Positions 1 through 51,125 of a DNA stretch of 64,000 bases are shown here, piece by piece. A model generated the notes under the pieces. The model saw only the letters and a list, made by a program, of their open reading frames with translations. It was not told where the DNA came from and did no database searches. A program made the translations under genes and the position numbers. Position 1 is the stretch's first letter; the number at the start of each line of letters is the position of its first letter. The DNA comes from Kordiimonas marina (GTDB lineage Bacteria > Pseudomonadota > Alphaproteobacteria > Sphingomonadales > Kordiimonadaceae). The DNA lies in the NCBI RefSeq assembly GCF_023006325.1, contig NZ_JAINDF010000002.1:558001-622000 (forward strand). Direction: 5' to 3'.

Positions 1-683
1 CCCGTCAGCACGCGGCCGAGGAAGTTGTCACGGTCCAGCATGGTGACCAGCATGGAGAAGGGCTTGTCAGCCGCGCCTTCGCGCACGGGTTCCGGCGCAG
101 GCACATGCTCGATGATCTTCTCAAACAGCGGGTGCAGGTTCTCACGCGGGCCTTCGAGGCTTTCGTCGCACCAGCCATCACGGCCCGATGCATAGAGGAT
201 CGGGAAGTCGAGCTGGTCTTCGTTGGCGTTCAGCGCCACGAACAGGTCGAAGCAGGCGTCGGTTGCCTTGTCCGGGTCACCGTCCGGCTTGTCCACCTTG
301 TTCACAACCACGATCGGACGCAGGCCAAGGGCCAGTGCCTTCATGGTCACGAATTTGGTTTGCGGCATCGGGCCTTCAGCGGCATCCACCAGAAGGACAA
401 CACCATCCACCATGGAAAGGATACGCTCCACCTCGCCACCGAAGTCGGCGTGGCCTGGGGTGTCGACGATATTGATGCGGGTGTCCTGCCACATCACGCT
501 CGTGCATTTTGCGAGAATGGTGATGCCGCGCTCACGCTCCAGGTCGCCACTGTCCATGGCGCGTTCGGCGACGCGCTGGTTGTCACGCACGGTGCCGGAC
601 TGGCGGAAAAGGTTATCCACCAGCGTGGTTTTGCCATGGTCGACGTGCGCGATGATGGCGATATTGCGAATGTTTTTCGTCAT
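1..683 (-). CDS. typA: GTP-binding protein TypA/BipA (5' part, cut by window edge)
   Basis: This is a translational GTPase of the EF-G/LepA class that acts on the ribosome under stress or cold. The first 227 residues are visible; the rest lies beyond base 1. All G-domain motifs are present: P-loop AHVDHGKT at residues 12-19, switch I RGIT at 52-55, DTPGH at 74-78 and NKVDKP at 128-133. The start [20 protein letters not shown] matches how TypA proteins begin. The spacing between the P-loop and the later motifs, and the segment AKCTSV after RGIT, favour TypA over LepA or EF-G. The gene stands alone, with about 250 bases between it and the divergent membrane-protein gene. Confidence 0.95.
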
Positions 684-943
684 GTGACTTTCAACTTAAA
701 AAAGGCCCACGGAAAACATTCCCCGGGGCCCCCGAATCCAAGATTTGCGCGCCTTATACGCGGATCAGGCCGTTTGAGCAAGGAAAACCGCGTGACAGTT
801 TCGTGGCAGTAGGGCGTTTTCATGCCTGAAAGTGTGATTCCCTCCAAGGCTGCGGTTGTTCTTGGGTCCGGATTGGCGTAAAGTGTTAACGAAATCTTAA
901 CAACAGTTACCGGACTGGCTTTTGGCCGCGATGGGGGGTGACG

Positions 944-4156: not shown

Positions 4157-4240
4157 GTGTAGCGGGTACCCCCCGCTAATGCCCTCCGTGGGCGTTTCCT
4201 CCCTGAGCCTGGGCCACGCTTATGCGTGGCCTCTTTTTTT
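4157..4240 (+). ncRNA. Candidate small RNA with anti-Shine-Dalgarno linker
   Basis: The stretch is intergenic and no plus-strand gene lies upstream for over 2 kb, yet it ends in a strong intrinsic terminator. Three hairpins are seen. The first pairs TAGCGGG 4160-4166 with CCCGCTA 4172-4178. The second pairs GCCC 4181-4184 with GGGC 4190-4193. The terminator pairs GGCCACGC 4212-4219 with GCGTGGCC 4224-4231 and is followed by seven T. The unpaired linker 4195-4204 holds TTTCCTCCCT, complementary to Shine-Dalgarno sequences. A weak sigma-70-like promoter (TTGGAT, 17 bases, TATCTT) would start transcription near 4157-4160. The family is unassigned. Confidence 0.5.
4212..4240 (+). terminator. Rho-independent terminator of the candidate small RNA
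   Basis: An eight-base-pair perfect stem (GGCCACGC/GCGTGGCC) with a four-base loop is followed by TCTTTTTTT. It is oriented so that only a plus-strand transcript starting in the 4.0-4.2 kb gap can use it. Confidence 0.8.
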
Positions 4241-4381
4241 GTGGATTCGGCCGCCGCGTCCCCTGCGGCCGGGATGTCCCTTCTGACCCCACCTTCTTCG
4301 CCATGCTGCCAGCATCCGTTTCATCGGCCTTGGTGCGGCCCCGGTCGTTCCGCCCCGGTAATGGTTTTGTGGCGCGCATAA

Positions 4382-43731: not shown

Positions 43732-44649
43732 TCAATGGTCTTTGGGCGCCAAGAAGATGCTGGGCTCCAAGCCGTTCAGGCGGAAGAAGGTGGCCAGTGC
43801 GCCGCTTTCGGTCGCCTGCTTCAGCCGGGCGTTGAACCCGCGCAGGAAGGCCCGGTTGGCCGGGGTGTCATGGCAGACGATGCGGATGATCGGCGTCGGC
43901 ACCGGGACATAATTCGGGTCATAAGGCGGCAAGGGTTCCTGGAGGTGCCGGAAGACAAACAGCACATCGGGCAGGTTGGCGACAATGGCGTCCACCGTGC
44001 CGGTTCTCAAAAGCTTGGCTTTGTCCACCTCGTCAGCGATGGGGATGAAGGTCACATCCGGCACCTTCACCGAATGCGGGATTTTGGCCCCCATGGCGAA
44101 GGCGATGCGCTTGCCGGTCAGGTCCGTTTCCTGGCTGATCAAAGGTTTGCCGGGGGGCGTGAAGATACGGATTGGCGAGCGGAGAAGCCCGTCGCTTTCA
44201 ATCAGCCTGTCATGCTCATCCCAGTCGCCGGTGCGGTAAAGCGTGTCGACATTCTTGGGGTAAACGCAGCTCTGCCTGTCTTCAAGGAAGGCGCGCATGG
44301 CCCGGCGGTAGGGGATAACGTCATAATGCTTCCGGGCGGTTTCCGCATCCAGCAGAAACCGGATCAGATCGTTATAGAAGCCGGTTCTATCGGTTGCGAG
44401 TGTGATACCCCAGCTGGTGGCATAGATATGGGCCGGGCTATTGCCTTCAGCAAGTTTCGTGGCCGCGTCGGGGGATGTTTCCCCTGGCACCAGCTTGTGC
44501 AGGAATAGTGGTTCCCCGGAGGTGTCAGGGCCAGGGGTGTCACGGACAACAGAGGCTGCAGACCGCCCTGCGGATGGCTCAGCCCCCGCCGACAAGCCGA
44601 TAGCCAGCATCAATGCTGCGATCGCCGCGCCGAAACCCCGGATGGTCAT
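43732..44649 (-). CDS. Orphan solute-binding-like periplasmic protein (paralogue A)
   Basis: This protein of 305 residues has a signal peptide ending near GLSAGAEPS. After a variable linker it has the family signature HIYATSWGITLATDRTGFYNDL, then YDVIPYRRAMRAFLEDRQSC, DLTGKRIAFAMGAKIP, DEVDKAKLLRTGTVDAIVANLPD and IVCHDTPANRAFL. The order and the second-lobe motifs are those of family 3 solute-binding proteins (type II periplasmic-binding fold). Two cysteines shared by all five paralogues are probably a disulfide. No ABC permease or ATPase gene is near. ATG 44649 has AAGGGG upstream. Confidence 0.8.
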   Translation of the reverse strand: MTIRGFGAAIAALMLAIGLSAGAEPSAGRSAASVVRDTPGPDTSGEPLFLHKLVPGETSPDAATKLAEGNSPAHIYATSWGITLATDRTGFYNDLIRFLLDAETARKHYDVIPYRRAMRAFLEDRQSCVYPKNVDTLYRTGDWDEHDRLIESDGLLRSPIRIFTPPGKPLISQETDLTGKRIAFAMGAKIPHSVKVPDVTFIPIADEVDKAKLLRTGTVDAIVANLPDVLFVFRHLQEPLPPYDPNYVPVPTPIIRIVCHDTPANRAFLRGFNARLKQATESGALATFFRLNGLEPSIFLAPKDH

Positions 44650-44869
44650 GTTACCCCTTTTGCGCAAATCCCCAGGTGCGGATAAGAAGCTGTCAGCCTC
44701 TTATCGCGCCTGGTTACACTCTCCCTAAGCGAAAGTGTAAGCCGGAAAAGGTTAGAACTTGCTTAACACGGGGCCTGATGCCGGGCTCTCTTGGCCCTAT
44801 ATCATGATAGCCCGGCGGATATGCCATAAGGTTGCGTAATAAAATTTTACAGATGGCGCATTTCTCTTA

Positions 44870-45108
44870 TTGACAATTGCGCGGTTCAGCAATTAAAGAA
44901 GCAGACAAGCGAGCCCGTGGTGGGTTCAGCGAACGGATTTTGAAACATGACTTACCTTTGGACCATCTCGAAAGCAGTGAAGGGCGCACAAATGTTTATT
45001 TGTGTCCGTCACGCGATCGTGCCCAGGGGTGGAGCTGCCGAGATCTAGAGCAGCGAATAGAAACAAAAGTTTCAACCCCTCCTGGGCCAAGGCTCCGGAG
45101 GGGTTTTT
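44870..45108 (+). ncRNA. Candidate non-coding transcript of about 200 bases
   Basis: A TTGACA -35-like box (44870-44875) and a TTAAAG -10-like box (44893-44898) precede about 200 bases that contain no convincing reading frame. The stretch ends in a strong intrinsic terminator at 45074-45108. Inside is the hairpin CACAAAT/ATTTGTG (44987-44993 with 44998-45004). It matches no RNA family I can recall, including 6S, SRP, tmRNA and RNase P. The RNA boundaries are inferred. Confidence 0.4.
45074..45108 (+). terminator. Strong terminator before the structured leader
   Basis: AACCCCTCC (45074-45082) pairs with GGAGGGGTT (45097-45105), a nine-base-pair stem, followed by a five-T tail. It separates the upstream non-coding transcript from the leader of the 45400 gene, so a promoter is needed after it, or read-through must be regulated. 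Confidence 0.85.
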
Positions 45109-45117
45109 CGTTTTGGG

Positions 45118-45395
45118 CCTATACGAAAAACCAAGTGAAGCGTTGAGGCCCCAGTGAGTGATGCGTTGAAGAGAATGCCCCGGGTTGGGGCAGTGAGGAA
45201 CAAGGCCGAAGGGCCGGTGACATATCAGACGCTGCCGCATAGGTACGCCCCACGGGGACGCCGAAGGTACGCAAAGAGACATCACCGCCCCGGATGCCGA
45301 GACTGAAACGAAACTAGGGTCGATAAGACCAGATACGAGCTACGGAGAAAGTCAAAGGGGCGTGCAGCCCCGGAGAAAGAGGCGTATAAGGAAAG
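45118..45395 (+). promoter_or_regulatory. Structured, riboswitch-like 5' leader of the 45400 gene
   Basis: About 275 non-coding bases fold into many hairpins joined by purine-rich linkers. A closing helix pairs CCTATACG (45118-45125) with CGTATAAGG (45383-45391, one bulged A). Its 3' strand runs into the Shine-Dalgarno AAGGAAAG, nine bases from ATG 45400. Inside are TGCCCC/GGGGCA (45176-45192), GGCC-GAAG-GGCC (45204-45215), an enclosing GGTGA/TCACC (45216-45220 with 45282-45286), GGTC/GACC (45318-45330) and GGGGC/GCCCC (45357-45371). The 5' part repeats GCGTTGA...CAGTGAG twice. It matches no riboswitch class I can recall. Confidence 0.55.
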
Positions 45396-45399
45396 AACC

Positions 45400-45888
45400 A
45401 TGAGCGCGATTTTCCAATTCAGCCCAGCAGCTACGGGCAAGGAGAGATTTGAAGCCTTCAAGGCGGCATTGCCGCTGGCCGTAAGGCGCGCCCGTCGCGG
45501 CTTCGGCGGCTTCATCACCCTCGACCTTGGCCACCCCATGGAGCCGGACGCCATCACGGGGGAACCCCAATGGCAATGGCACCTGTGGGTCTATACCTGC
45601 GACTGGGACCTGAAGCGCGGTGGGGAACGCCTGCTGTGGCGGCGCGAAAGCGACAATGCCCATGCCAATCTGGTGCTTGAACGGCTCCAGGGCGAGGATT
45701 TGGTCGCGATCGAGTTCGCCGAAGCCGACGACTGCTTCATTTTCCGCTTCTCCGGCGGCTACGACCTGCATGTCGACCCGAACTTCTACGGCTATGACGC
45801 CGGTGACGACATGTTCATGCTGTTCAAGCACGGCGAGCGCGATGTGCTCAGCTATTCGCCTGAACGGCGGTTCTACAAAGCAGCGTAA
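45400..45888 (+). CDS. Protein of unknown function downstream of structured leader
   Basis: This soluble protein of 162 residues is rich in aromatic and acidic residues and has no signal peptide. The C-terminal part, DCFIFRFSGGYDLHVDPNFYGYDAGDDMFMLFKHGERDVLSYSPERRFYKA, resembles small alpha/beta immunity-type proteins, but I cannot name a family. It begins with MSAIFQFSPAATGKERF. The gene is followed 11 bases later by the small DUF4926-like gene, so the two form an operon. The long structured leader is the main feature. Confidence 0.75.
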   Translation: MSAIFQFSPAATGKERFEAFKAALPLAVRRARRGFGGFITLDLGHPMEPDAITGEPQWQWHLWVYTCDWDLKRGGERLLWRRESDNAHANLVLERLQGEDLVAIEFAEADDCFIFRFSGGYDLHVDPNFYGYDAGDDMFMLFKHGERDVLSYSPERRFYKAA

Positions 45889-45899
45889 GGAGCAGGACT

Positions 45900-46142
45900 A
45901 TGGACTTATTTCACGACGTAAAACTGCCGGCCGACATGCCGCAGTATGGTCTCCGCAAAGGCTCCACGGGCGCGATTGTGTCTGAGGGCCGCTCGCACCG
46001 CCGGATTTATACGGTGGAGTTCCCGCAAGGGGCGATGCGCGCGTCGACCATGCTCGACCTCGATGCCGATGCCTTCGACCTGACCGGTGAAACCGTGGTC
46101 GTGGCGTCCTGGCGGCAGGCAGCCATGGTGCTCGAACGCTGA
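45900..46142 (+). CDS. DUF4926-like small protein
   Basis: This protein of 80 residues follows the DUF4926 pattern. The opening is D(V)KL..DMPQYGLRKGSTGAIVSE, then a beta-barrel-like YTVEFPQGAMRASTMLDLDADAFDL. Members are often second genes in toxin/antitoxin-like or immunity-like pairs. A stop-to-start gap of 11 bases with AAGGAGCAGG links it to the 45400 gene. The role is inferred from layout only. Confidence 0.7.
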   Translation: MDLFHDVKLPADMPQYGLRKGSTGAIVSEGRSHRRIYTVEFPQGAMRASTMLDLDADAFDLTGETVVVASWRQAAMVLER

Positions 46143-46162: not shown

Positions 46163-46350
46163 GGCCCGGTTTTCCAGAAGAAAATCCCGGGCTCCAGGTC
46201 ACAAGCCCTGACCTTTAGCCGTTAACCCCCTCCGGGGACCGTGTTTTCTGTTTTTCAGCAACCAGGCAGATTGACATTCCCGGACCCAAACCATTGAGAC
46301 CCCTGGCGCCGCCTCTCCTCCCCCTTACCCCTGAAGGCGGCGCTCCCCTC
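46163..46350 (+). other. Non-coding 3' region of the 45400-46142 pair
   Basis: No gene is seen between 46143 and 46597. It holds an interrupted hairpin (GCCCGG/CCGGGC with TTTTC/GAAAA inside, about 46163-46190), a C-rich plus-strand stretch (46290-46345) and then the terminator at 46351. Confidence 0.5.
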
Positions 46351-46384
46351 AAGCCCCACGTCCCTAAGCGTGGGGCTTTTTTTT
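46351..46384 (+). terminator. Terminator of the 45400-46142 pair
   Basis: AAGCCCCACG (46351-46360) pairs with CGTGGGGCTT (46369-46378), followed by a run of eight T. Confidence 0.88.
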
Positions 46385-46597
46385 GCCCTCATCGCGGCCG
46401 GGGCTAACTCCCCGCTTTCGTTTATGATTCTGGCGTGTGCCGAGGTCTGACAAGTCATCCGGGCGCACTTTCATCTTGCAGTTGGCCGGTGGGAACGTCA
46501 GGCTATAGGGGAGGGTTCGGCCTTGGGAAGGGAACCGAGCTCGGGGGACAGAACTGCAAGGGTGGCTTACGGCTGCCCAACATGGGAGGGGACTGAC

Positions 46598-50231: not shown

Positions 50232-51125
50232 TTAGCGGTCGCCGCCCGGCAGATAGTGCGTGGCATCCAGACCCTGACTGTTGAGGAAGCCGGCGAGCGT
50301 ACCGTCGGCTTCTATCTTTTTCATGTGCGCGTTCAGCTTGCCGATGAAAACACGGTTGTCCGGGGTGTCGTGGCAGACGACGCGTACCTGGGTGTTATTC
50401 AGCTCAAACGCCGGGTTGAAGGGCGGCAGCGGCGCGCCCAGCCGGTCCATCACGAACTTCAGGTCCGGCATCGCCGCGCTTATCAGGTCCACCCGGCCCG
50501 TAAGCAGCATCTGCGCCTTGGCGGCCTCATCGGTGACGGCAATGAAATCGATATTGGCGTCGCGCAGGAAATAGGGCACGCGGGAGCCCATGGCATAGGC
50601 CAGCACCTTATGCTCGATGGCGTCGGCTGAAGCGGGCGGTGTGGTGCCGGGGCGGGAGAAAACATAAACCCGGACCCGGATGATGGGCGCGCTTTCGATC
50701 AGCCCGTCGGTCTTCTCAATTTCCTTGCCGTCCATCAGAAGTTTCAGGTTGCTGGGGTAGAGGCAGCTGGTTTTCTCATCGAAGAAGCGGGCCTTGGCAC
50801 GGCGGTAGGGCTGGATCTCGTAATCCGAGCCCATGTCGGCTTCCATGATGGTCCGGCGGGCGAGGTCATTATAAAAGCCGCTGCCGTCCGACTTCAGTGT
50901 CATGCCCCAATCGGTGGCGAGAACATGGGTGAGCCGCGTGCCGACCCCGTCCATTTCGGACCTGTCCTTTGAACCAATATGGATCGGAATGGCTTGGACG
51001 GGGGGCGCTGAGGTCATGAGCGCGAGGAGACCAAGGCTGGCCATGGTCTTACATGCCCAGCGCTTAAGCTGGGGGGACTTCGTGTAGGTCTTGCCCGTCC
51101 GGCTATGGGTTATCGCAGTAATCAA
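50232..51125 (-). CDS. Orphan solute-binding-like periplasmic protein (paralogue B)
   Basis: A member of the five-gene family. Signal segment MASLGLLALMTSAPPVQA follows a long basic n-region. Family motifs are HVLATDWGMTLKSDGSGFYNDL, YEIQPYRRAKARFFDEKTSC, LAYAMGSRVPYFL, AKAQMLLTGRVDLISAAMPD and VVCHDTPDNRVFIG. The best start is TTG 51125 with GGAGTGG upstream; GTG 51155 lacks a ribosome-binding site and ATG 51044 would shorten the n-region. It is one of three consecutive minus-strand copies, with gaps of about 100 bases, each apparently transcribed separately or weakly linked. Confidence 0.8.
   Translation of the reverse strand: MITAITHSRTGKTYTKSPQLKRWACKTMASLGLLALMTSAPPVQAIPIHIGSKDRSEMDGVGTRLTHVLATDWGMTLKSDGSGFYNDLARRTIMEADMGSDYEIQPYRRAKARFFDEKTSCLYPSNLKLLMDGKEIEKTDGLIESAPIIRVRVYVFSRPGTTPPASADAIEHKVLAYAMGSRVPYFLRDANIDFIAVTDEAAKAQMLLTGRVDLISAAMPDLKFVMDRLGAPLPPFNPAFELNNTQVRVVCHDTPDNRVFIGKLNAHMKKIEADGTLAGFLNSQGLDATHYLPGGDR

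What the first reader, a model, noticed from the sequence alone, without database searches (positions are those of the whole stretch)
45118..45395. Riboswitch-like structured leader whose closing helix takes in the Shine-Dalgarno site
About 275 bases upstream of an unknown gene are not coding but fold into at least five local hairpins. A closing helix (TATACG with CGTATA plus CC/GG) has a 3' strand that runs into AAGGAAAG just before ATG 45400. A duplicated 5' block (GCGTTGA...CAGTGAG twice) and many A-rich linkers suggest tertiary contacts. A strong terminator sits just before it. I recognise no riboswitch, group I/II intron or other RNA class, so it may be a new regulatory RNA controlling the 45400/45900 pair.
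Basis: partly seen in the sequence, partly recalled or inferred. Interest (0 to 1): 0.72.

Follow-up and report, generated by a model that had tools for sequence, protein, structure and literature searches.

The report
Ribosome-controlled attenuator before immunity-like genes

Summary
The described stretch (45118-45395) is non-coding and hairpin-rich, but it is not a conserved RNA. In the nearest relative (protein 89% identical) the spacer is largely different. The five genomes with such a spacer show no well-supported common fold, and the TATACG/CGTATA closing helix is of near-chance quality. No Rfam family matches.

What is conserved lies just upstream (44870-45109): a TTGACA box, a 33-codon small ORF (44947-45048), a hairpin inside it, and an intrinsic terminator. 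The 3' end of the small ORF can pair with the terminator's 5' arm, forming an antiterminator. This layout occurs once in 18 of 19 genus genomes, each time before the 162-aa gene. Both helices show compensatory changes, and own arms pair better than swapped arms (3/20000 and 0/20000 permutations as good).

Best explanation: a ribosome-mediated transcription attenuator. Translation through the leader's last third hides the antiterminator, so transcription stops; slow or early-stalled translation lets the operon be read. The leader has no regulatory-codon run, so the trigger is probably general translation trouble.

Operon genes look immunity-like: DUF4926, DUF4279, NADAR, and a distant homologue of the 162-aa protein beside a pretoxin-HINT-like fragment. 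That function is inferred, not shown.

The parts
44870..44875 (+). TTGACA, probable -35 box; possible -10 TTAAAG at 44893-44898
   Evidence: TTGACA lies 77-107 nt before the small ORF in 18 of 18 genomes. The generic promoter scan did not report it; the -10 is weak.
44947..45048 (+). Small leader ORF, 33 codons: MTYLWTISKAVKGAQMFICVRHAIVPRGGAAEI*
   Evidence: Homologous ORF of 30-37 codons in 18 of 19 genus genomes, one with a GTG start. Over the same stretch frames +1/+2 are open in 0 and 7 of 18 (frame 0 is open by construction); between-clade protein similarity 26.8 in frame 0 against 12.9 and 14.5. Trp5 18/18.
44974..45014 (+). Hairpin P1 inside the small ORF
   Evidence: A hairpin forms in this segment in single-sequence folds of 18 of 18; consensus of 17 has 5 pairs, 4 with changes on both sides, energy only -2.93 kcal/mol.
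45021..45035 (+). Antiterminator strand, inside the last codons of the small ORF
   Evidence: Duplex with terminator 5' arm better than all but at most 11 of 200 mononucleotide shuffles in 14 of 18 genomes; own vs swapped 3/20000; 7 cells changed on both sides, 0/500 shuffles.
45060..45073 (+). Small hairpin GAAACAAAAGTTTC just before the terminator
   Evidence: Read from sequence; G014 keeps pairing with GGAAAC/GTTCC. Not tested statistically.
45074..45109 (+). Intrinsic terminator (attenuator): 5' arm 45074-45087, 3' arm 45091-45104, T run
   Evidence: The last 45 nt fold to a stem of -14.9 to -25.5 kcal/mol in 18 of 18; 9 cells changed on both sides, 0/500 shuffles; own vs swapped 0/20000.
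45109..45399 (+).
45400..45888 (+). Gene for a 162-aa protein without a Pfam, NCBIfam or PADLOC family
   Evidence: 18 of 19 genus genomes; no family above cut-off; model pLDDT 82.6
45900..46142 (+). DUF4926 gene, 80 aa
   Evidence: PF16277, E 1.8e-8, 34.1 bits over cut-off 29.1

Best explanation
The 5' leader is a ribosome-mediated transcription attenuator. RNA polymerase transcribes a leader with a 30-37 codon small ORF followed by an intrinsic terminator. The last codons of the small ORF form the 5' strand of an antiterminator that pairs with the terminator's 5' arm before the 3' arm is made. A ribosome reading the last third of the small ORF covers that strand, so the terminator forms and transcription ends near 45108. 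If translation of the leader is slow or stalls in its first part, the antiterminator can form first and polymerase reads through the spacer into the 162-aa gene and the DUF4926 gene. Shown: anatomy, linkage, conservation, and compensatory change in both alternative helices. Inferred: that the switch works in the cell, its direction, and its trigger (most likely general slowing of translation, because there is no run of one regulatory codon). The flagged 45118-45395 stretch is the untranslated spacer behind the attenuator.
For: The same layout is found once (E <= 0.001) in 18 of 19 genus genomes, each time upstream of the 162-aa gene on the same strand; the genome lacking it (G013, 76% complete) also lacks the gene. 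Terminator end lies +158 to +183 from the small-ORF start in 18/18. The antiterminator duplex is better than all but at most 11 of 200 mononucleotide shuffles in 14 of 18 genomes. Own arms pair better than swapped arms, 17 sequences: 3/20000 for the antiterminator, 0/20000 for the terminator. Pair counts on 17 sequences: antiterminator 79.7% of cells paired (3/500 shuffles as high), 7 both-side cells (0/500), covariation score 1/500; terminator 89.8% (0/500), 9 cells (0/500), score 0/500; both fall when slid. In G023 one 5'-arm base changes together with its partners in both helices. Between G000 and G014 the reading frame slips near the end of the small ORF while the RNA string GCCCAGGGG is kept. 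Folds of the transcript cut before the 3' arm: at least 5.5 antiterminator pairs with a ribosome at codons 2-10 in 18 of 18; with a ribosome from codon 28 to a few codons before the stop, at most 0.1 in 17 of 18.
Against: No expression data. With the complete terminator present, equilibrium folding favours the terminator in most cases: a ribosome at codons 2-12 gives more than 4 antiterminator pairs in only 4 of 18 (G014, G024, G025, G026; not G000), and at codons 13-26 only G014 and G016 exceed 5, so the model needs co-transcriptional kinetics. A ribosome on the stop codon itself leaves 10 pairs free in G000, G009, G012 and G020; the late block fails in G019 (4.0 pairs); without any ribosome G016, G017 and G009 form almost no antiterminator (0.1, 0.0, 1.2), so untranslated leaders need not read through. 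The duplex is no better than shuffles in G015, G022, G018 and G019. Of the five measures, two are not convincing: pairs with both-side change (33/500, 73/500) and further pair types (164/500, 481/500); the tool warns that relatedness inflates shuffle tests. The register was anchored by eye. The -10 box and SD in G000 are weak. Small-ORF dN/dS ranges from 0.11 to 0.96 over 29 of the 30 closest pairs (the other has dS 0).
Confidence: 0.8

Rival explanations
1. A metabolite riboswitch or other structured regulatory RNA within 45118-45395 that sequesters the Shine-Dalgarno site through a closing helix.
For: Several stable hairpins; the spacers of G014 and G010 are clearly more stable than shuffles (z -4.0, -5.0). 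One spacer hairpin keeps pairing between G016 and G017 by eye, and 2 of 9 consensus pairs have a both-side change.
Against: No Rfam match. Consensus over five spacers is one 9-pair hairpin with covariation term +2.37. Closing helix reached by 66/1000 shuffles, pair probability 0.004 with gene context, not seen in G014. Spacer length 212-291 nt; identity within 0.04 of shuffled in 5 of 10 pairs.
Confidence: 0.04
2. The small ORF is an independent small-protein gene with its own terminator; the operon behind it uses another promoter.
For: Conserved peptide start MTxLWT with invariant Trp5 and a strong terminator right after it. Clade-2 genomes have A+T-rich similar DNA just before the 162-aa gene that could hold a second promoter (read; not tested).
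Against: 18 of 18 linkage to the 162-aa gene with no second copy at E <= 0.001; the peptide C-terminus varies while its RNA pairing is kept; both mutually exclusive helices show compensatory change.
Confidence: 0.1
3. A nascent-peptide (arrest-peptide) attenuator: a specific drug or metabolite stalls the ribosome on the conserved N-terminal peptide, rather than general translation slowing. It is a sub-case of the attenuator, differing in trigger.
For: The first codons are the best conserved (Trp5 18/18, Thr2 17/18, CTT-TGG 14/18), and a stall at codons 5-9 leaves the antiterminator free in the cut transcript in 18/18.
Against: N-terminal conservation may reflect initiation or RNA constraints; the residues that follow differ strongly between the two clades. 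No stalling motif was tested.
Confidence: 0.3

Closest known systems
Classical ribosome-mediated transcription attenuators (trp, his, ilv leaders; recalled)
   Same: Leader ORF, hairpin within it, antiterminator using leader-ORF RNA, intrinsic terminator before the first gene.
   Different: No run of codons for one regulatory amino acid, and the operon is not an amino-acid pathway.
Listeria Rli53/lmo0919 and Rli59/lmo1652 antibiotic-responsive attenuators (passages of PMC8079631)
   Same: Small ORF in the leader; termination relieved by translation-inhibiting antibiotics. For Rli53 the ORF overlaps an anti-antiterminator/antiterminator arrangement.
   Different: No relation by sequence is claimed or was tested; Rli53 has a three-amino-acid ORF and controls an ABC protein giving lincomycin resistance. 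Induction here is untested.
ermC leader (named in passages of PMC2965389, as sensing a global slowdown in translation)
   Same: Senses translation rather than one amino acid.
   Different: ermC controls translation; here the anatomy is a transcription terminator.

Membership tests
Ribosome-mediated transcription attenuator | Translatable leader ORF between promoter and terminator | tested here: met
   Homologous ORF in 18 of 19 genus genomes; frame 0 similarity between clades about twice that of other frames. That frame 0 is open in 18/18 follows from how the stretch was chosen. Translation itself not shown.
Ribosome-mediated transcription attenuator | Intrinsic terminator upstream of the first structural gene | tested here: met
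   18 of 18 with the gene; both-side changes 0/500 shuffles
Ribosome-mediated transcription attenuator | Antiterminator that uses leader-ORF RNA and excludes the terminator | tested here: met
   Compensatory changes and swap test; 4 of 18 genomes not better than shuffles one by one
Ribosome-mediated transcription attenuator | Ribosome position switches between the two structures | tested here: inconclusive
   Switch seen in folds of the transcript cut before the 3' arm; in full-length equilibrium folds an early ribosome gives it in 4 of 18
Ribosome-mediated transcription attenuator | Measured termination/read-through dependent on leader translation | not testable with these tools
   Needs experiment
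Amino-acid-specific attenuator | Run of regulatory codons in the leader peptide | tested here: not met
   Read from the 18 peptides: no residue three times in a row except Ala-Ala-Ala in G015 and G026; a single invariant Trp
Riboswitch / known Rfam class | Match to a family covariance model | tested here: not met
   No match over 44870-45399 at gathering score or E up to 10
Riboswitch (new class) in 45118-45395 | Structure kept across homologues by compensatory changes | tested here: not met
   Five spacers: 9 consensus pairs, 2 with a both-side change, covariation term unfavourable
Polymorphic-toxin immunity protein (162-aa protein) | Encoded next to a polymorphic toxin | tested here: inconclusive
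   None noticed beside it in the genus loci read, without a dedicated search; the 31% homologue in G027 directly follows an ORF with a PT-HINT match, E 5.6e-6, 27.1 bits just under the 27.7 cut-off
NFACT-N (RqcH-like) domain (162-aa protein) | Structural match to NFACT-N | tested here: inconclusive
   By title, 10 of the top 11 Foldseek hits are RqcH/Rqc2/NEMF complexes or PavA/FbpA-type proteins, but E 5e-3 to 0.13, TM to query 0.35-0.43, rmsd 12-15; no sequence match. That these share the NFACT-N domain is recalled.

The most novel reading that the evidence does not exclude
A translation-damage alarm for an orphan immunity operon: when toxins or antibiotics slow ribosomes, the leader peptide is not finished, the attenuator opens, and the cell makes a set of immunity or repair proteins (162-aa protein, DUF4926, DUF4279, NADAR) whose membership varies between species behind one conserved attenuator.
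Probability: 0.25. Interest if true: 0.75.

Novelty: new member of a known kind. Interest (0 to 1): 0.52.

Why it matters
Attenuators without a regulatory-codon run are hard to find because their sequences drift. Here 18 genomes show one keeping its two alternative helices by compensatory change while even the peptide's reading frame slips. If the genes behind it are immunity proteins, these bacteria would be sensing toxin attack through its effect on their own ribosomes, which a reporter assay can test directly.

Tried and rejected
Riboswitch or known RNA class: no Rfam hit. Element repeated in its own genome: one copy. Similar DNA on plasmids: none. Conserved spacer fold: not supported. Leader peptide or gene outside the genus: in the order sample of 396 the leader profile hit 18 genus genomes plus one weak hit, G320 (E 0.004), which on reading lies in an unrelated longer frame; the gene hit 18 genus genomes plus G027 and G211. 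The class sample of 385 gave only G000 for both. For the distant homologues in G027 and G211 the 500 nt before the matched stretch hold no TTGACA, and only G211 has a run of five or more T. Function of the 162-aa protein by profile: nothing convincing. NFACT-N resemblance kept only as a weak lead. An internal-gap count meant to show 3-nt indels went against simple frame-keeping: 1- and 2-nt gaps were about as common as or commoner than 3-nt gaps in the pairwise DNA alignments.

Literature, as seen: PMC8079631, PMC2965389, PMC11833690, PMC11125620 and PMC13304343 by passages; PMC10117765, PMC5864092, PMC13178558, PMC11543638, PMC10343443, PMC12645872 and PMC4615327 by search listing only. Searches of the open library listed nothing that by title or abstract start describes this leader; subscription papers are not held. 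That the genus may be Kordiimonas is a guess from recall, not tested; only listed that family.

Full report
The stretch between the terminator ending at 45108 and ATG 45400 is as described in its letters: no supported coding frame, hairpins, the doubled GCGTTGA...CAGTGAG block and the TATACG/CGTATA complementarity. As evidence for a structured regulatory RNA it is weak. Folding is 1.5 to 2 standard deviations better than shuffles. A helix as long as the closing one occurs in 66 of 1000 shuffles, and its mean pair probability drops from 0.83 to 0.004 once 25 nt of the gene are included. Rfam gives nothing over 44870-45399. The region occurs once in the genome and was not found on plasmids.

Homologues decide it. 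The 162-aa protein is in 18 of 19 genomes of the genus. In five of these (G000, G014, G016, G017, G010; 'clade 1') it follows the terminator after a spacer of 212-291 nt. Between G000 and G014 the gene DNA is 84% identical, the leader before the terminator 77%, and the spacer 66% against 60% for shuffled sequence. In 5 of 10 genome pairs the spacer is within 0.04 of the shuffled value; only G016-G017 is clearly alike (0.82 against 0.61). The five-way consensus is one 9-pair hairpin with an unfavourable covariation term. What the spacers share is composition: T 11-14%, more G than C. Two of five are clearly more stable than shuffles (G014, G010). A rapidly changing, hairpin-bearing, T-poor untranslated spacer fits, perhaps shaped to resist Rho or RNases; that is speculation.

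What is conserved. Just upstream, each of the 18 genomes has the same series: TTGACA 77-107 nt before a small ORF of 30-37 codons, and an intrinsic terminator ending 158-183 nt after its start. The peptide mostly begins MTxLWT; Trp5 is in 18 of 18 and Thr2 in 17 of 18. Frame 0 is open by construction; over the same stretch the other frames are open in 0 and 7 of 18, and protein similarity between clades is 26.8 in frame 0 against 12.9 and 14.5. dN/dS is 0.11-0.96 in 29 of the 30 closest pairs, so selection on the peptide is at most moderate. A profile of the peptide finds one copy at E <= 0.001 in each of the 18 genomes, none besides G000 in a class sample of 385, and in the order sample of 396 only the genus plus a weak hit that reading dismissed.

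The switch. The end of the small ORF is complementary to the terminator's 5' arm. The terminator stem folds at -14.9 to -25.5 kcal/mol in 18 of 18; the antiterminator duplex beats all but at most 11 of 200 mononucleotide shuffles in 14 of 18 and not in G015, G022, G018, G019. With 17 sequences (G011 left out as near-identical to G023) own arms pair better than swapped ones: 3 of 20000 permutations as good for the antiterminator, 0 of 20000 for the terminator. Counts on aligned 11-nt arms give 79.7% and 89.8% of cells paired, with 7 and 9 both-side changes (0 of 500 shuffles each), and both drop when slid; but the number of pairs with both-side change (33 and 73 of 500) and of further pair types (164 and 481 of 500) does not stand out. 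One example is telling: in G023 a base of the 5' arm has changed together with its partners in both competing helices. Another: between G000 and G014 the reading frame slips near the end of the small ORF, changing the peptide, while the RNA string GCCCAGGGG stays. So near the C-terminus it is the RNA pairing that is kept. The small ORF also folds into a hairpin; 4 of 5 consensus pairs show both-side changes.

Ribosome logic. In folds of the transcript cut before the terminator's 3' arm, a ribosome at codons 2-10 leaves at least 5.5 antiterminator pairs in 18 of 18; from codon 28 to a few codons before the stop the maximum is 0.1 in 17 of 18 and 4.0 in G019. This predicts termination when ribosomes occupy the leader's end, and read-through when translation is slow or stalled early. 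Results against: with the full terminator, equilibrium folding mostly prefers the terminator, an early ribosome shifting it in 4 of 18 and not in the window's own leader, so kinetics are needed; a ribosome resting on the stop codon frees the strand again in G000, G009, G012 and G020; and without a ribosome G016, G017 and G009 form almost no antiterminator. The leader lacks a run of one regulatory codon, so amino-acid sensing is unlikely; general translation slowing, or a specific stall near codons 5-9, are the candidates.

The genes behind it. The 162-aa protein is constant; its neighbours vary. In the window it is followed by DUF4926. In G016 the next gene is DUF4279, a domain reported with immunity proteins of polymorphic toxins (PMC13304343, passages). 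In five genomes a NADAR-type gene precedes it (cluster c4; one member tested, E 2e-33). NADARs reverse guanosine ADP-ribosylation of DNA and RNA and can act as antitoxins (PMC11833690 and PMC11125620, passages). Several clade-2 genomes have an unknown gene of about 130-160 aa in between. The 31% homologue in G027 directly follows an ORF with a pretoxin-HINT-like stretch (E 5.6e-6, just under Pfam's cut-off), a usual place for an immunity gene (recalled). The AlphaFold model (pLDDT 82.6, six sequences) has weak matches to RqcH/Rqc2/NEMF-type structures, 10 of the top 11 by title. An immunity-like role is plausible but unproven.

Comparison and verdict. It meets the anatomical features of a ribosome-mediated transcription attenuator; functional proof is outside these tools. 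In manner it is closest to the Listeria antibiotic-responsive attenuators (PMC8079631, passages) and differs from amino-acid attenuators in lacking regulatory codons. I rate it a new member of a known kind, with moderate interest that would rise if the operon proves to be a toxin-inducible immunity set.

Noticed in passing
46276-46391: Below-threshold matches to several sRNA families (anti-hemB 32.2 bits, ar14 27.6, suhB 21.0), ending in a strong terminator; by eye a similar C-rich stretch with terminator follows the operon in G014 and G010. Possibly an sRNA with a CUCCUCC motif.
   Followed up: partly
4174-4247: suhB/mmgR sRNA above Rfam's gathering score.
   Followed up: no
43732-44667 and 50232-51044, minus strand: Two genes for related proteins (37% identity over 246 aa) flank the region; further related ORFs lie near the operon in other genus members (cluster c2, six genomes). 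Only weak, below-cut-off similarity to solute-binding proteins.
   Followed up: partly
L109 (G027), 490-936 minus strand: ORF with a pretoxin-HINT-like stretch immediately before a distant homologue of the 162-aa protein.
   Followed up: partly
L053, L052 upstream of the 162-aa gene: G018 and G012 carry short unknown ORFs between the attenuator and the NADAR-type gene (read).
   Followed up: no
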